The notes under the pieces were generated by a model that searched no databases, had not been told where the DNA came from, and saw nothing but the letters and a program-made list of their open reading frames with translations. This document shows, one piece after another, positions 525 through 36,809 of a stretch of 64,000 nt of DNA (the stretch's first letter is position 1; each line of letters begins with the position of its first letter). The position numbers and the translations under genes were made by a program. The stretch covers positions 992,001-1,056,000 of the forward strand of contig NZ_BRPL01000002.1 in the NCBI RefSeq assembly GCF_027923585.1. The letters are read 5' to 3'. Source of the DNA: Philodulcilactobacillus myokonensis (GTDB lineage: Bacteria > Bacillota > Bacilli > Lactobacillales > Lactobacillaceae).

Positions 525-1049
525 TTAAAATTTATCCTTTAATTTATCATGAGGATAACGATGAACACGCTCCAAATCATTAAAATTTTGCTGACGCAAG
601 ACTTCAAAAATAACGATTGCACACGAATTAGATAGGTTCAGAGCTCTAATATGTGTATCATCTTGTGGAATTCGAATTGCCTTTTCTTGATTCTTTCTCA
701 TAAATGGTTCTGGCAATCCAGTTGTTTCCTTTCCAAACATGAAGTAATAGTCGCCATCGATATGATTACTATAATTATTTTCAGTGTAATCTTTTTCAGC
801 AAATTTAGATACTAAAAATAGTTTAGATTTTGGCTTCATCGATTTCATAAAAGCAGGTAAATTATCATGATAGTGAATATTAACTTTATTCCAATAATCT
901 AATCCGGCTCTTTTTAAATGCTTATCATCGACTGAAAAACCAAGTGGTTTAATTAAATCTAAAACAGTATCCGTTCCAGCACATGTTCTTGCTATGTTAC
1001 CAGTGTTTGATGGCATTAATGGTTCAAATAATACAATGTGATTGGTCAA
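525..1049 (-). CDS. trmL: tRNA (cytidine(34)-2'-O)-methyltransferase TrmL
   Basis: A 174-aa SPOUT-class methylase that transfers a methyl group from SAM to the ribose of the wobble base of tRNA-Leu species. Diagnostic stretches are the N-terminal FEPLMPSNTGNIARTC, the central FGKETTGLPEPF and the C-terminal LNLSNSCAIVIFEVLRQ, which form the knotted cofactor site. Length is normal for the family. The start is a TTG preceded by a GAGAGG binding site. It lies 23 bp after the pseudouridine synthase gene and closes the relQ-nadK-rluA-trmL run, so transfer-RNA and ribosomal RNA modification genes are grouped here. Confidence 0.93.
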   Translation of the reverse strand: MTNHIVLFEPLMPSNTGNIARTCAGTDTVLDLIKPLGFSVDDKHLKRAGLDYWNKVNIHYHDNLPAFMKSMKPKSKLFLVSKFAEKDYTENNYSNHIDGDYYFMFGKETTGLPEPFMRKNQEKAIRIPQDDTHIRALNLSNSCAIVIFEVLRQQNFNDLERVHRYPHDKLKDKF

Positions 1050-4225: not shown

Positions 4226-4264
4226 ATAAAAAATCACTTCTTTTAATTGAAGTGATTTTTTATT
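4226..4264. terminator. bidirectional terminator between yjbH and coiA
   Basis: The stem AAAAATCACTTC / GAAGTGATTTTT has A and T runs on both sides. Its left half lies beyond coiA and its right half overlaps the last codons of coiA, so gene end and terminator share sequence. Confidence 0.85.
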
Positions 4265-5331
4265 TGGCTTGTTTTATCAAAATAGTCTAAATACCATTTA
4301 AATTCCTTTAATTGAAATAATCGGTAATGTTTGATCTTAATATAATGAAAACAAATTAATAATTTTATAAAATGAATAAATATTGATTTATACATTATTT
4401 CAACATTTTTAATCATAATCCAATCATTTTTTGCATCCAATTTTTCAAATGTTTTTTGATAAAGTTCCTTTAATGGTATACCTGAATCTAAATTTAAAAT
4501 AATTAAAATATGCCATTTTAAAATTTGATGCCCTAAAATTGGCATTTCAGCCAATGGATAATGGCAAATAAAAGGACAAGTTACCATTGAATGACCGTTT
4601 TGATAACAAATCATTTGAAATTGTATCGTCTTTAAATCATGGTGCATTAATTTTATTTGAATTTGTTTAATTTGTTTTAATATATCTGAAGGATGGCAGT
4701 GAGGACTTTTTATGTGATTACTATTCCAAAATAATTTAAATTGCTTGTAATTATATAAGATTATTTTTCTAAAATTAAATTTACCACTTTGTTCAGTAAT
4801 TTGATAGTGAATTTCTAAACCACACCGGGTAGTTGACCAATACATAATGTAAAATCCAAAATTTTTGGAATATTTTATAAACTGAATCATTTGTTTTAAT
4901 GATAAATGACGGTTTAAATATGGTGACCCTAGAATCCAAAATGACGTCATCCCTAATTGATGATAACCAGATATCCTTTGTTTTAAACGTTGGCTAGAAA
5001 TTGGGCTACATTGAAATTCAAATGCTATCTTTGAGCACAAAATATCAGGTCGTTGACGAATCGTTGGTAAATAAGATTCTAATTTAATATTTTTTAAACC
5101 TCCGTTGATCAAGAAATCGTGAATTTGTTGTTTACCCAATAAATGTTCATTTGTTTCCCCTTCACTAAAAGAATGGCAGCAATTATTTTGATCATGCGCA
5201 AAATGAGCCATTTTTTTAGATCCTTTTTTCAAAATAACTTTATTTTGACATGATGGACAAAAATATAAATTTTTCTTATGAGCAAATTCAGCATTGATTA
5301 AGTTATGATTTCGATCAACTGCAATCAGCAA
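4243..5331 (-). CDS. coiA: competence protein CoiA
   Basis: A 362-aa CoiA family protein, a nuclease-like factor needed in competent streptococci and bacilli to process or recombine incoming DNA. The N-terminal part has a zinc-ribbon pair (CPSCQNKV, about residues 25-32) and the AHFAHD motif. The central PD-(D/E)XK-like core is RPDILCSKIAFEFQCSPIS, with the acidic and glutamine residues intact. The long C-terminal half is poorly conserved, as usual. The last codons overlap the terminator hairpin. It sits beside mecA, which controls competence turnover in Bacillus, and beside yjbH. Confidence 0.9.
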   Translation of the reverse strand: MLIAVDRNHNLINAEFAHKKNLYFCPSCQNKVILKKGSKKMAHFAHDQNNCCHSFSEGETNEHLLGKQQIHDFLINGGLKNIKLESYLPTIRQRPDILCSKIAFEFQCSPISSQRLKQRISGYHQLGMTSFWILGSPYLNRHLSLKQMIQFIKYSKNFGFYIMYWSTTRCGLEIHYQITEQSGKFNFRKIILYNYKQFKLFWNSNHIKSPHCHPSDILKQIKQIQIKLMHHDLKTIQFQMICYQNGHSMVTCPFICHYPLAEMPILGHQILKWHILIILNLDSGIPLKELYQKTFEKLDAKNDWIMIKNVEIMYKSIFIHFIKLLICFHYIKIKHYRLFQLKEFKWYLDYFDKTSQIKNHFN

Positions 5332-7548: not shown

Positions 7549-7553
7549 ATTAA

Positions 7554-7627
<74 letters not shown>

Positions 7628-7645
7628 ATAATGTATAATATTTAA

Positions 7646-8241: not shown

Positions 8242-8329
8242 AGGAGGATGAGGGATTCGAACCCTCGCGCGGTTTGACCCGCCTAACGGTTTTCAGGACC
8301 GTCCTCTTCAGCCACTTGAGTAATCCTCC
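8242..8329 (-). tRNA. tRNA-Ser(TGA)
   Basis: Class II tRNA with a long variable arm and anticodon loop CCTGAAA. Acceptor GGAGGAT/ATCCTCC. The base after the acceptor stem reads U, not the G73 usual for serine tRNAs. It is the first tRNA downstream of the internal promoter at 8346-8374. Confidence 0.93.
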
Positions 8330-8378: not shown

Positions 8379-8452
8379 TGGACCTTGTAGGACTCGAACC
8401 TACGACCTGACGGTTATGGGCCGTCTGCTCTAACCAACTGAGCTAAAGGTCC
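8379..8452 (-). tRNA. tRNA(CAT), probable tRNA-Ile2, with C33
   Basis: Anticodon CAT. The acceptor GGACCTT/AAGGTCC has the C4-G69 and C5-G68 pairs used by the lysidine synthetase TilS, and the body resembles Bacillus tRNA-Ile2, so it most likely decodes AUA after lysidine modification. The loop reads CCCATAA, with C at position 33 where almost all tRNAs have U. No CCA. A Met identity is the alternative. Confidence 0.8.
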
Positions 8453-8462
8453 AAGACCCTTA

Positions 8463-8536
8463 TCGCGGCGGAGGGAATCGAACCCACGACCTCCCGGGTA
8501 TGAACCGGACGCTCTAGCCTGCTGAGCTACACCGCG
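8463..8536 (-). tRNA. elongator tRNA-Met(CAT)
   Basis: Anticodon loop TTCATAC. The D-arm and body (GTAGCTCAGCAGGCTAGAGC) match Firmicutes elongator Met. A paired C1-G72 end distinguishes it from the initiator. Discriminator A, no CCA. Confidence 0.9.
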
Positions 8537-8560
8537 ATATAATGAAAACATTTCCATTAA

Positions 8561-9366: not shown

Positions 9367-14082
<4,716 letters not shown>

Positions 14083-35136: not shown

Positions 35137-35425
35137 ATTTAAATTTAATCGTGTTAAAAACATTGAGCGGAGTAGTAGCTTTTTCATTAGAAATCTAAGC
35201 GAATCCTAGGTCGGTGAAATAGGATATTTCAAAAAAAGCAAAGTAAACCGTGAGTTGTGGATATGATTTTAATTGTAGTAGCCACTGGGATTGCGCCCAT
35301 TACAGCAATGGAGTATCACTTACCAAGTAAGTCGTACTCTTTAAGCAGTCGATGTTTCGTCATCGAAATCAAGGTGGTACCGCGCAAAAGGCGTCCTTAG
35401 TTAAAAACTAAGGACGCCTTTTTTG
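35137..35425 (+). promoter_or_regulatory. T-box riboswitch upstream of brnQ, probably Val (GUA)
   Basis: The leader has the canonical T-box stretch AAGGTGGTACCGCG (35371-35384) and a long terminator stem GGCGTCCTTAGTT / AACTAAGGACGCC with six T. In stem I the helix GCTTTTT/AAAAAGC borders AGTAGTA on one side and AAAGTAAACC on the other, so the specifier reads most simply as GUA (valine). The UGGU element pairs with A73, which tRNA-Val(TAC) at 9091 has. Uncharged tRNA should allow brnQ transcription. Confidence 0.85.
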
Positions 35426-35462: not shown

Positions 35463-36809
35463 ATGAATATTCATCTATCAAAGAAACAGTACATCATTTT
35501 ATCATCATTACTATTCGGCCTGTTCTTTGGCGCTGGTAATTTAATTTTTCCAATCCACCTTGGTCAGTTAAGTAACACGAACTGGATTTTTGCAACGATT
35601 GGATTCTTATTGTCGTCAATCCTTTTACCATTACTCTCCATTCAAGCCATCAGTAAAACGGAAAGCAATAGCATGTTTGATCTAGCACTACCAACTGGCT
35701 CCATTTTTGCTTTTATTTTTATGGCTTTGACCCACTTATCATTAGGGGTTCTAATTGCGTCTCCTAGAACAGCAACTGTAACATATTCCATGGGAATTCA
35801 GCCATTACTTCCAACTCGTGATAATCAAATTGGTCTCTTCATTTTTTCATTAATTTTCTTCGGGGGTTCATATTGGCTCGCATTTAAATCAAATCAAATT
35901 ACTAAATACGTTGGTAAATTTTTGAATCCGGTATTTATTCTATTGATTCTCTTTCTTTTTATCCTTGCTTTCGTTATTAAGGGTGACTTTAGAAATCTTC
36001 CCATCATTAGTCATAATGGTCAAAATGCAAGTAATTTAGCAACCGGATTTTTGCAGGGATACAACACAATGGATGCCTTAGCTGGATTAGGGTTTGGGGT
36101 TGCTATTATCGCATCGTTAAAATTTTTTGGATTAAAAACAAAACGACAACGATCAAAAGCCGTTTCTAAAATTGGCATGCTGACAATGGGATTCGAAGCA
36201 TTGATTTATATCTTTTTAATTGCATTAGGTGTCATCAGTTTAAAATATACTTCAATCAGTGCTAATGGTGGGATTGCCTTTACCGAAATTATGAAGCACT
36301 ATACCGGTGTATTTGGTGCTGCATTATTAGCTACTCTGACATTATTGGCATGTTTAACAACTGAAATTGGATTAATTAGTTCCCTTTCCCAAGATTGGGC
36401 TAATCGATTTCCCAAGTTGGGTTATCATTTCTTTTTAACACTTTCAACAATCGGATCATTTATTATTGCTAATTTTGGTTTAACTAAAATTATTACGTAT
36501 TCATCACCAATATTAGAATTATTATATCCAATTGCAATTGCTTTGATTATTTTAGGCGTTTTAAATCGATATCTCGAACAAAATCAAATCATCTACAAAA
36601 CAACGATTATTTTCACAGCCATTCCAGCAATTCTAGATTTCATCCATAGTTTGCCTGCACCGATTAATCAAACCGCTTTTGTCTATCATTTAAGCCAATG
36701 GTGTAATTCATCCATTCCATTATTCAACGTTGGATTGGATTTTATCCCATTTATGTTATTCGGACTTATAATTAGTTTTATCTGGGTAAAAATAAGAAAA
36801 ATAGCTTAA
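35463..36809 (+). CDS. brnQ: branched-chain amino acid permease BrnQ
   Basis: A 448-aa carrier with about twelve membrane helices of the LIVCS family, which imports leucine, isoleucine and valine with sodium or protons. The start YIILSSLLFGLFFGAGNLIF is the family signature. The start ATG at 35463 lies 12 bases after AAGGAGG. Control by the T-box at 35137-35425 links uptake to tRNA charging. Confidence 0.95.
   Translation: MNIHLSKKQYIILSSLLFGLFFGAGNLIFPIHLGQLSNTNWIFATIGFLLSSILLPLLSIQAISKTESNSMFDLALPTGSIFAFIFMALTHLSLGVLIASPRTATVTYSMGIQPLLPTRDNQIGLFIFSLIFFGGSYWLAFKSNQITKYVGKFLNPVFILLILFLFILAFVIKGDFRNLPIISHNGQNASNLATGFLQGYNTMDALAGLGFGVAIIASLKFFGLKTKRQRSKAVSKIGMLTMGFEALIYIFLIALGVISLKYTSISANGGIAFTEIMKHYTGVFGAALLATLTLLACLTTEIGLISSLSQDWANRFPKLGYHFFLTLSTIGSFIIANFGLTKIITYSSPILELLYPIAIALIILGVLNRYLEQNQIIYKTTIIFTAIPAILDFIHSLPAPINQTAFVYHLSQWCNSSIPLFNVGLDFIPFMLFGLIISFIWVKIRKIA

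What the first reader, a model, noticed from the sequence alone, without database searches (positions are those of the whole stretch)
8379..8452. tRNA(CAT) with C at position 33
The anticodon loop of the probable tRNA-Ile2 reads CCCATAA. U33 is almost universal because it makes the U-turn. C33 is known mainly in eukaryotic initiators. The other two CAT tRNAs here keep U33 (loops CTCATAA and TTCATAC). If real, AUA decoding or TilS recognition may be affected.
Basis: seen in the sequence. Interest (0 to 1): 0.55.

Follow-up and report, generated by a model that had tools for sequence, protein, structure and literature searches.

The report
Many tRNAs lacking universal uridine 33

Summary
The tRNA at 8379-8452 (minus) is an intact tRNA-Ile2 with C33, the only Ile2 found in the genome, whose size and RNA counts match Philodulcilactobacillus myokoensis WR16-4. 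It is one case of something larger. Here 7 of 63 tRNA genes have C33 (Ile2, Ser-UGA, Ser-CGA, Tyr twice, Trp, Gln-CUG); in sister genome G034 (probably Acetilactobacillus) 9 of 69 do. Among 581 distinct tRNAs held from 48 other Lactobacillales, no regular elongator tRNA has C33; four genomes have it in the initiator. The change is always to C, and most other invariant tRNA positions hold.

Of 397 family genomes searched, the same two carry U1397 in 16S rRNA, five copies each. A published passage calls C1397 universally conserved. They also share U1196 and a swapped U940-A1343 pair. TilS looks intact and no extra TadA paralogue was found.

My reading: position 33 accepts either pyrimidine in this clade, plausibly linked to a changed decoding site. 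The causal link, and whether C33 is edited in RNA, are untested. Ile2 C33 alone recurs in other bacteria, and drift without ribosomal help remains a serious rival.

The parts
8379..8452 (-). tRNA-Ile2 (CAU, expected lysidine 34), loop CCCAUAA; C33 at window 8419
8242..8329 (-). tRNA-Ser(UGA), loop CCUGAAA; C33 at window 8296
12507..14082 (-). 16S rRNA gene with clade-specific changes near the decoding site (E. coli numbering: U940, U1196, A1343, U1397; this genome also U1383 and A1385)
12654..12654 (-). U1397 of 16S rRNA (C in E. coli and in the relatives compared)
12855..12855 (-). U1196 of 16S rRNA (A in E. coli, G027 and G018)
12708..12708 (-). A1343 of 16S rRNA, pairs with U940 (usual pair C940-G1343)
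13111..13111 (-). U940 of 16S rRNA, partner of A1343
12666..12666 (-). A1385 of 16S rRNA (usual G); not shared by the sister genome
8161..8236 (-). initiator tRNA-fMet, normal U33 (contrast)
7553..7628 (-). initiator tRNA-fMet second copy, normal U33 (contrast)
8462..8537 (-). elongator tRNA-Met, normal U33 (contrast)

Best explanation
The C33 tRNA-Ile2 is a working tRNA and the cell's only AUA reader. It belongs to a clade-wide shift in which position 33 may be either pyrimidine. On the branch leading to Philodulcilactobacillus and G034 (probably Acetilactobacillus), U33 became C33 in at least five tRNA species, and more followed in each line. C33 lacks the N3 hydrogen that U33 gives to the U-turn but has the same size and ribose (structural knowledge, recalled), so the loop can still turn, less firmly; purines never appear. 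I think the loss is tolerated because the 30S decoding site changed on the same branch (U1397, U1196, U940-A1343), either permitting C33 or compensating for it. Shown: the C33 set, its limit to two genomes among those examined, the pyrimidine-only pattern and the shared 16S changes. Inferred: that C33 stays unedited in the RNA, that the tRNAs work, and that ribosome and tRNA changes are causally linked.
For: C33 in 7 of 63 tRNA genes of G000 and 9 of 69 of G034, five species shared. Outside the clade, 581 distinct tRNAs of 48 genomes (parts of their tRNA sets) gave 7 non-U33: six initiators and one ARAGORN call with a four-base anticodon. G000 and G034 are sisters (support 0.996), and next-out G023 has U33 in Ile2 and Ser-UGA. 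All changes are T to C, although G000 is AT-rich (33.5% G+C). In the clade positions 8, 14, 53, 56, 58 and 61 are intact in every tRNA. U1397 occurs in the same 2 of 397 family genomes as Ile2 C33, in five 16S copies of each. At 319 strongly conserved 3' positions of 16S, the clade's shared departures are 940, 1196, 1343 and 1397; beyond two departures common to all family members compared, G027 has none and G018 one, and, over shorter stretches, G013 none of 184 and G008 one of 125. The 23S stretches printed at H69, P-loop, A-loop and PTC match E. coli or relatives. uS9 ends in SKR and a TruA-like frame is open in both.
Against: The two genomes are sisters, so the association of C33 with the 16S changes is one evolutionary event. 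U1196 occurs naturally in Thermus thermophilus, so it cannot alone require or permit C33. Ile2 C33 alone recurs in Sporolactobacillus, Solobacterium and others, whose 16S I did not examine, so a changed ribosome may not be needed. In yeast, a published test on tRNA-Gln(CUG), a species with C33 here, found that U33C and U33A gave the pseudohyphal phenotype tied to poor decoding while U33G did not differ from wild type (PMC3664417, passage): C33 can be costly, and purines are not always worse. No RNA data were available: the mature base at 33 is unknown. Four of the nine C33 species (Ser-CGA, Gln-CUG, Arg-CCU, Arg-CCG) have no outside control in what I held. Ribosomal proteins other than uS9 (uL13 seen only as a neighbour) and most tRNA-modification genes were not examined.
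Confidence: 0.5

Rival explanations
1. Near-neutral drift without ribosomal help. C33 is only mildly harmful, and this lineage on a long branch has fixed it in mostly single-copy tRNAs; the 16S changes are an unrelated coincidence.
For: C33 species are single copy in 8 of 9 cases against 17 of 34 (p = 0.057). Ile2 C33 arises alone elsewhere. A published passage describes a long branch for Acetilactobacillus.
Against: Tyr (40 per 1000 codons in G000 stretches) is not low demand and both copies changed. Only C appears, never A or G. Five C33 species are kept in both genomes, against AT bias in G000. Other invariant positions are not generally degraded. 16S identity to E. coli is like that of relatives (G034 74.6 and G000 76.3% against G018 75.5 and G027 77.0%), so rRNA is not simply decaying.
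Confidence: 0.3
2. C33 is edited to U33 in the RNA by a deaminase, as C8 is edited in Methanopyrus (recalled). The gene would look wrong while the tRNA is normal.
For: Only T to C changes occur, which editing would erase. Extra A34 tRNAs (Leu-AAG, Thr-AGT) suggest a TadA with several substrates, and G000 TadA has Asn at the residue equivalent (recalled) to E. coli D108.
Against: PF00383 gave 3 matches in G000 (TadA, a ComEB-like protein, a weak Cdd-like hit) and 2 in G034, within the 2 to 5 of 18 relatives; the G034 second match was judged by score only. G034 TadA keeps Asp. If editing were general, C33 should also appear in the many other tRNAs, where U33 is kept.
Confidence: 0.12
3. C33 is selected tRNA by tRNA, for example to lower misreading of stop codons by near-cognate tRNAs, or to escape an anticodon nuclease or bacteriocin.
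For: Six of nine C33 species (Tyr, Trp, Cys, Gln-CUG, Ser-UGA, Ser-CGA) read codons one base from a stop; A36 tRNAs are over-represented (5 of 9 against 4 of 34, p = 0.011 uncorrected).
Against: The near-cognate enrichment is not significant (p = 0.12) and the A36 value does not survive correction for the 15 tests made. Lys, Glu and Gln-UUG keep U33. No nuclease was looked for.
Confidence: 0.06
4. Sequencing error, assembly fault or pseudogene.
Against: Two assemblies agree, with two Tyr copies and five 16S copies consistent in each; scores and stems are normal.
Confidence: 0.02

Closest known systems
Metazoan initiator tRNA-Met with C33
   Same: C33 in a CAT tRNA (PMC9023262, passages)
   Different: An initiator; here nine elongator species carry C33 and the initiator keeps U33
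Sulfolobales tRNA-Cys(GCA) with C33
   Same: A natural elongator tRNA with C33 in an archaeal clade (PMC7668247, passages); Cys is also in the G034 set
   Different: The passage names one tRNA species; here nine species, in bacteria, with 16S changes
Candida tRNA-Ser(CAG) with G33 (recalled)
   Same: A natural departure from U33 with effects on decoding
   Different: A purine, one tRNA, tied to codon reassignment
Isolated Ile2 C33 in Sporolactobacillus, Solobacterium and other Erysipelotrichaceae, some Clostridia
   Same: Same base in the same tRNA
   Different: In 99 non-CAT tRNAs held, from 36 of the 65 named loci, only 2 departed from U33, both on one odd MAG contig (L064)
Thermus thermophilus 16S U1196
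   Same: Natural U at 1196 (PMC7357141, passages)
   Different: Whether it goes with U1397 or with C33 tRNAs was not tested

Membership tests
bacterial tRNA-Ile2 (AUA reader, TilS substrate) | CAU anticodon in an elongator body | tested here: met
bacterial tRNA-Ile2 (AUA reader, TilS substrate) | C4-G69 and C5-G68 acceptor pairs (recalled as TilS determinants) | tested here: met
   GGACC...GGTCC ends; determinant status recalled
bacterial tRNA-Ile2 (AUA reader, TilS substrate) | U33 in the anticodon loop | tested here: not met
   C33
bacterial tRNA-Ile2 (AUA reader, TilS substrate) | TilS encoded in the genome | tested here: met
   199.5 bits, open frame 472 codons
bacterial tRNA-Ile2 (AUA reader, TilS substrate) | lysidine or a similar base at 34 | not testable with these tools
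   needs tRNA analysis
C-to-U edited tRNA | dedicated deaminase in the genome | tested here: inconclusive
   no additional PF00383 paralogue common to both genomes; a deaminase outside this family was not sought, and TadA itself is not excluded
C-to-U edited tRNA | U33 in mature RNA | not testable with these tools
   no RNA data
tRNA pseudogene | broken stems, low score, companion normal gene | tested here: not met
   70.0 bits, full anticodon stem, sole Ile2 found
initiator-type C33 tRNA | initiator features (C1-A72 mismatch, three G-C pairs in the anticodon stem; recalled) | tested here: not met
   G1-C72 and stem GACGG/CCGTC

The most novel reading that the evidence does not exclude
A bacterial clade has remodelled its decoding centre: 16S rRNA changes at 1397, 1196 and 940-1343 and the loss of the universal U33 in nine tRNA species evolved together, so that the ribosome no longer depends on the uridine U-turn in these tRNAs.
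Probability: 0.3. Interest if true: 0.88.

Novelty: new variant of a known kind. Interest (0 to 1): 0.72.

Why it matters
U33 is among the most conserved bases in tRNA, and the need for it has been studied mostly with engineered mutants. A culturable bacterium from fermented vegetable extract and a sister lineage that do without it in nine tRNA species give a natural test of what U33 is for, and whether 16S rRNA can make up for its loss. They also carry a change at 16S C1397, described in print as universally conserved.

Tried and rejected
TilS loss or damage: rejected, intact in both genomes. Second, normal Ile2 gene: none found. TadA paralogue as editor: none found by PF00383; G000 TadA has Asn at a conserved Asp but G034 does not. 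uS9 tail or TruA loss: the SKR end is kept in both and a TruA-like frame (named by eye) is open in both; G000 uS9 has some substitutions a few residues before the end. General tRNA decay: rejected, positions 8, 14, 53, 56, 58 and 61 hold; C55 was also seen in relatives (G027 2 of 40, G008 3 of 46) and is not clade-specific; U37 and one C54 occur only in odd extra Asn and Lys genes. Rare-codon explanation: weakened by Tyr. Feature enrichment among C33 species: 15 tests (14, one), best p = 0.011 uncorrected. 23S rRNA: printed H69, P-loop, A-loop and PTC stretches are unremarkable; at base 2586 the clade agrees with E. coli where relatives have C. A p-value for C33 genes inside against outside the clade was computed but is not used, since related genes are not independent. 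Raw reads and RNA data: not available.

Literature searched: (open-access library only). None of the listings or passages I saw reports multi-species C33 in a bacterium or U1397; (the term C1397U) returned no paper. Passages, not whole texts, were seen of PMC10284405, PMC11938285, PMC8957270, PMC13134047, PMC7357141, PMC6239188, PMC11231383, PMC3664417, PMC9023262, PMC7668247 and PMC11096365.

Full report
OBSERVATION. The gene at 8379-8452 (minus) is a complete tRNA: 70.0 bits against RF00005, with a fully paired anticodon stem GACGG/CCGTC around the loop C-C-C-A-U-A-A. C33 is window base 8419. The body is tRNA-Ile2, and many relatives differ from it at only two bases, one being U33. A genome search gave one full match, the next being tRNA-Ile(GAU) at 78%.

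ORGANISM. The genome (G000) has 1,672,155 bases. A paper describing Philodulcilactobacillus myokoensis WR16-4 gives 1,672,155 bp, 63 tRNA genes, 15 rRNA genes and 33.5% G+C, with Acetilactobacillus jinshanensis as closest relative (PMC10284405, passages). I found 63 tRNA genes and five 16S matches. The sister genome G034 (1,616,430 bases) fits A. jinshanensis by size: 1.61 Mbp and 39.7% G+C are given for Acetilactobacillus in PMC8957270 (passages). Its name is inferred, not shown; the G034 stretches I fetched, rRNA included, have 41.7% G+C.

IT IS NOT ONE tRNA. All 63 tRNA genes of G000 were read: 7 have C33 (Ile2, Ser-UGA, Ser-CGA, Tyr twice, Trp, Gln-CUG), 56 have U33, none a purine. In G034, 9 of 69 have C33 (Ile2, Ser-UGA, Tyr twice, Trp, Gln-CUG, Cys, Arg-CCU, Arg-CCG), 60 U33. 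That is 9 of 43 species, five of them C33 in both genomes. Partial tRNA sets of relatives gave 0 of 40 (G027), 0 of 44 (G013), 0 of 46 (G008), 1 of 33 (G018) and 1 of 22 (G006), the last two being initiators. Over 48 other Lactobacillales genomes, of whose tRNAs I held only a part, 581 distinct tRNAs gave 7 without U33: six initiators in four genomes and one odd ARAGORN call with a four-base anticodon. For the C33 species in particular, outside the clade Ile2 was U33 in 51 of 51, Ser-UGA 27 of 27, Trp 11 of 11, Tyr 9 of 9 and Cys 9 of 9; Ser-CGA, Gln-CUG, Arg-CCU and Arg-CCG were absent from what I held, so they have no outside control.

EXTENT. An Ile2-C33 pattern matched 2 of 397 family genomes, G000 and G034; genomes whose Ile2 is not assembled, or departs from the pattern, would be missed, and in a first search of 60 relatives 10 gave no Ile2 match at the cut-off used. 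The C33 Tyr anticodon arm (a 17-mer) matched 1 of 395 genomes of the order, G000; G034 was not in that draw. A tree of TilS plus TadA from 19 genomes puts G000 and G034 together (0.996) with G023 next (0.951). G023 has U33 in Ile2 and Ser-UGA; its Tyr, Trp and Cys were not seen. So the change most likely began on the stem of this pair.

OTHER tRNA POSITIONS. In both genomes positions 8, 14, 53, 56, 58 and 61 are intact in every tRNA, and the D-loop GG in all but one, a doubtful Lys-CUU gene; base 54 is C in one odd Asn gene and base 37 is U in that Lys gene and four odd Asn genes. C55 appears in 3 of 63 and 6 of 69, but also in relatives (2 of 40, 3 of 46). The departure at 33 is therefore largely specific, and always U to C.

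RIBOSOME. Compared with E. coli and with relatives G027 and G018, both clade genomes share U940, U1196, A1343 and U1397 in 16S rRNA; G013 and G008, held only in part, are normal over the stretch printed, which covers 1343 and 1397. U940-A1343 is a swapped pair. Against the Rfam consensus, of 319 strongly conserved 3' positions G000 departs at 7, G034 at 8, G027 at 2, G018 at 3, E. coli at 8; over shorter stretches G013 departs at 2 of 184 and G008 at 3 of 125. Two (1432, 1516) are common to all the family members compared. The four shared by the clade alone are 940, 1196, 1343 and 1397; G000 adds 1385, and G034 adds 1091 and 1108. E. coli's own 8 departures show that such a count is not zero in normal ribosomes; none of its eight is at these four sites. 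The U1397 19-mer occurs in 2 of 397 family genomes, G000 (5 copies) and G034 (5 copies). Five is all the 16S genes of G000 if the paper's 15 rRNA genes are five sets; for G034 I did not count 16S genes otherwise. Genomes whose 16S gene is not assembled would be missed, and I did not count them. Published passages call C1397 universally conserved, a pawl that intercalates in mRNA (PMC6239188). They say A1196 is highly conserved, occasionally U as in Thermus (PMC7357141), and stacks on C1054, which stacks on the wobble base of A-site tRNA. The side chain of the modified C34 (ava2C) of tRNA-Ile2 fills a space lined by G530, C1054 and A1196 (PMC11938285). The 23S stretches printed at H69, P-loop, A-loop and PTC are unremarkable. 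uS9 ends in SKR and a TruA-like frame is open in both.

TilS, DEAMINASES, CODONS. TilS scores 199.5 bits in G000 and 198.9 in G034, with open frames of 472 and 460 codons. PF00383 gave TadA-like, ComEB-like and a weak Cdd-like match in G000, and two matches in G034 that by score and alignment are TadA-like and, for the second, not read, probably ComEB-like. AUA makes up 106 of 19,554 codons in G000 stretches and 12 of 7,228 in G034 stretches, so AUA must be read. Tyr codons are about 40 per 1000 in G000.

WHICH tRNAs. Of 15 features tested on 43 species, A36 gave the best value (5 of 9 against 4 of 34, p = 0.011 uncorrected); C34 gave p = 0.058 and single copy p = 0.057; nearness to stop codons gave p = 0.12, C or G at 34 p = 0.12. 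None survives correction. The scarcity of U34 and A34 among C33 tRNAs (1 of 9) would fit enzymes that need U33, but is not significant; a published test shows human Elongator needs U33 (PMC11096365, passages), and bacterial enzymes were not tested here. A yeast study found U33C and U33A, but not U33G, to give a phenotype in tRNA-Gln(CUG) (PMC3664417, passage), which tells against C33 being simply harmless.

ELSEWHERE. A scan of the named genome collection gave 65 stretches with a CAT tRNA bearing C33. Of these, 24 begin GGNCC as Ile2 does: five Sporolactobacillus, 13 Solobacterium or other Erysipelotrichaceae, and six others (Clostridia, other Bacillota, one Acidimicrobiales, one Hwanghaeella). 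In 49 genomes of this set, elongator Met with U33 is often matched beside the C33 gene, and among matches of that pattern no U33 CUCAUAA partner appears in the Firmicutes cases. Of 99 non-CAT tRNAs held from 36 of the 65 loci, 2 lacked U33, both on one contig, L064. So isolated Ile2 C33 is recurrent and need not come with a clade-wide change, and the multi-tRNA form is limited, as far as I could see, to this clade.

VERDICT. The C33 tRNA-Ile2 is real and the visible tip of a clade-wide change of a near-universal tRNA base, accompanied by rare 16S changes. I hold at 0.5 that unedited C33 is tolerated as a pyrimidine with ribosomal help, and at 0.3 that drift explains it without such help. RNA sequencing would settle editing at once.

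Noticed in passing
L245 (G018), L250 (G006), and initiators in G024 (L012) and G028 (L017): Bacterial initiator tRNA-fMet with C33 (loop CCCAUAA) in four Lactobacillaceae genomes, like metazoan initiators. Eight Erysipelotrichaceae loci hold a second CAT tRNA with C33 beside Ile2, acceptor CGCGAGG, probably the initiator.
   Followed up: partly
L197 (G000 TadA), L206 (G028 TadA): TadA carries Asn where 17 of 18 relatives have Asp (GAPNRKFG; G028 GAKNNKFG is the exception), the site recalled as E. coli D108, changed in adenine base editors.
   Followed up: partly
G000 and G034 tRNA sets (L137-L151, window; L152, L215-L233): Forty or more anticodon species in genomes of 1.6 Mb, with extra C34 tRNAs and A34 tRNAs Leu-AAG and Thr-AGT; Thr-AGT also in G013 and G018.
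   Followed up: no
L223 (G034:C1:537000-545000): Four low-scoring Asn-GUU tRNA genes in two tandem pairs with U37, an abnormal base next to the anticodon; possibly on a mobile element.
   Followed up: no
L149 (G000:C2:1203100-1203400): A second Lys-CUU gene with U37, no GG in the D-loop and a weak T stem; probably a pseudogene.
   Followed up: no
tRNAs of G000, G034, G027, G008: C at position 55 (normally U, made pseudouridine) in several tRNAs across the family, for example Gly-UCC.
   Followed up: partly
window 525-1049: TrmL-like tRNA ribose methyltransferase for position 34, scoring 182.9 bits, just under the NCBIfam cut-off of 190.6.
   Followed up: no
window 35154-35401: T-box leader upstream of a membrane transporter gene at 35463-36809 that looks like a branched-chain amino acid carrier by eye.
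   Followed up: no
window 4243-5331: 362-aa ORF with no NCBIfam match; by eye it resembles a CoiA-type competence nuclease.
   Followed up: no
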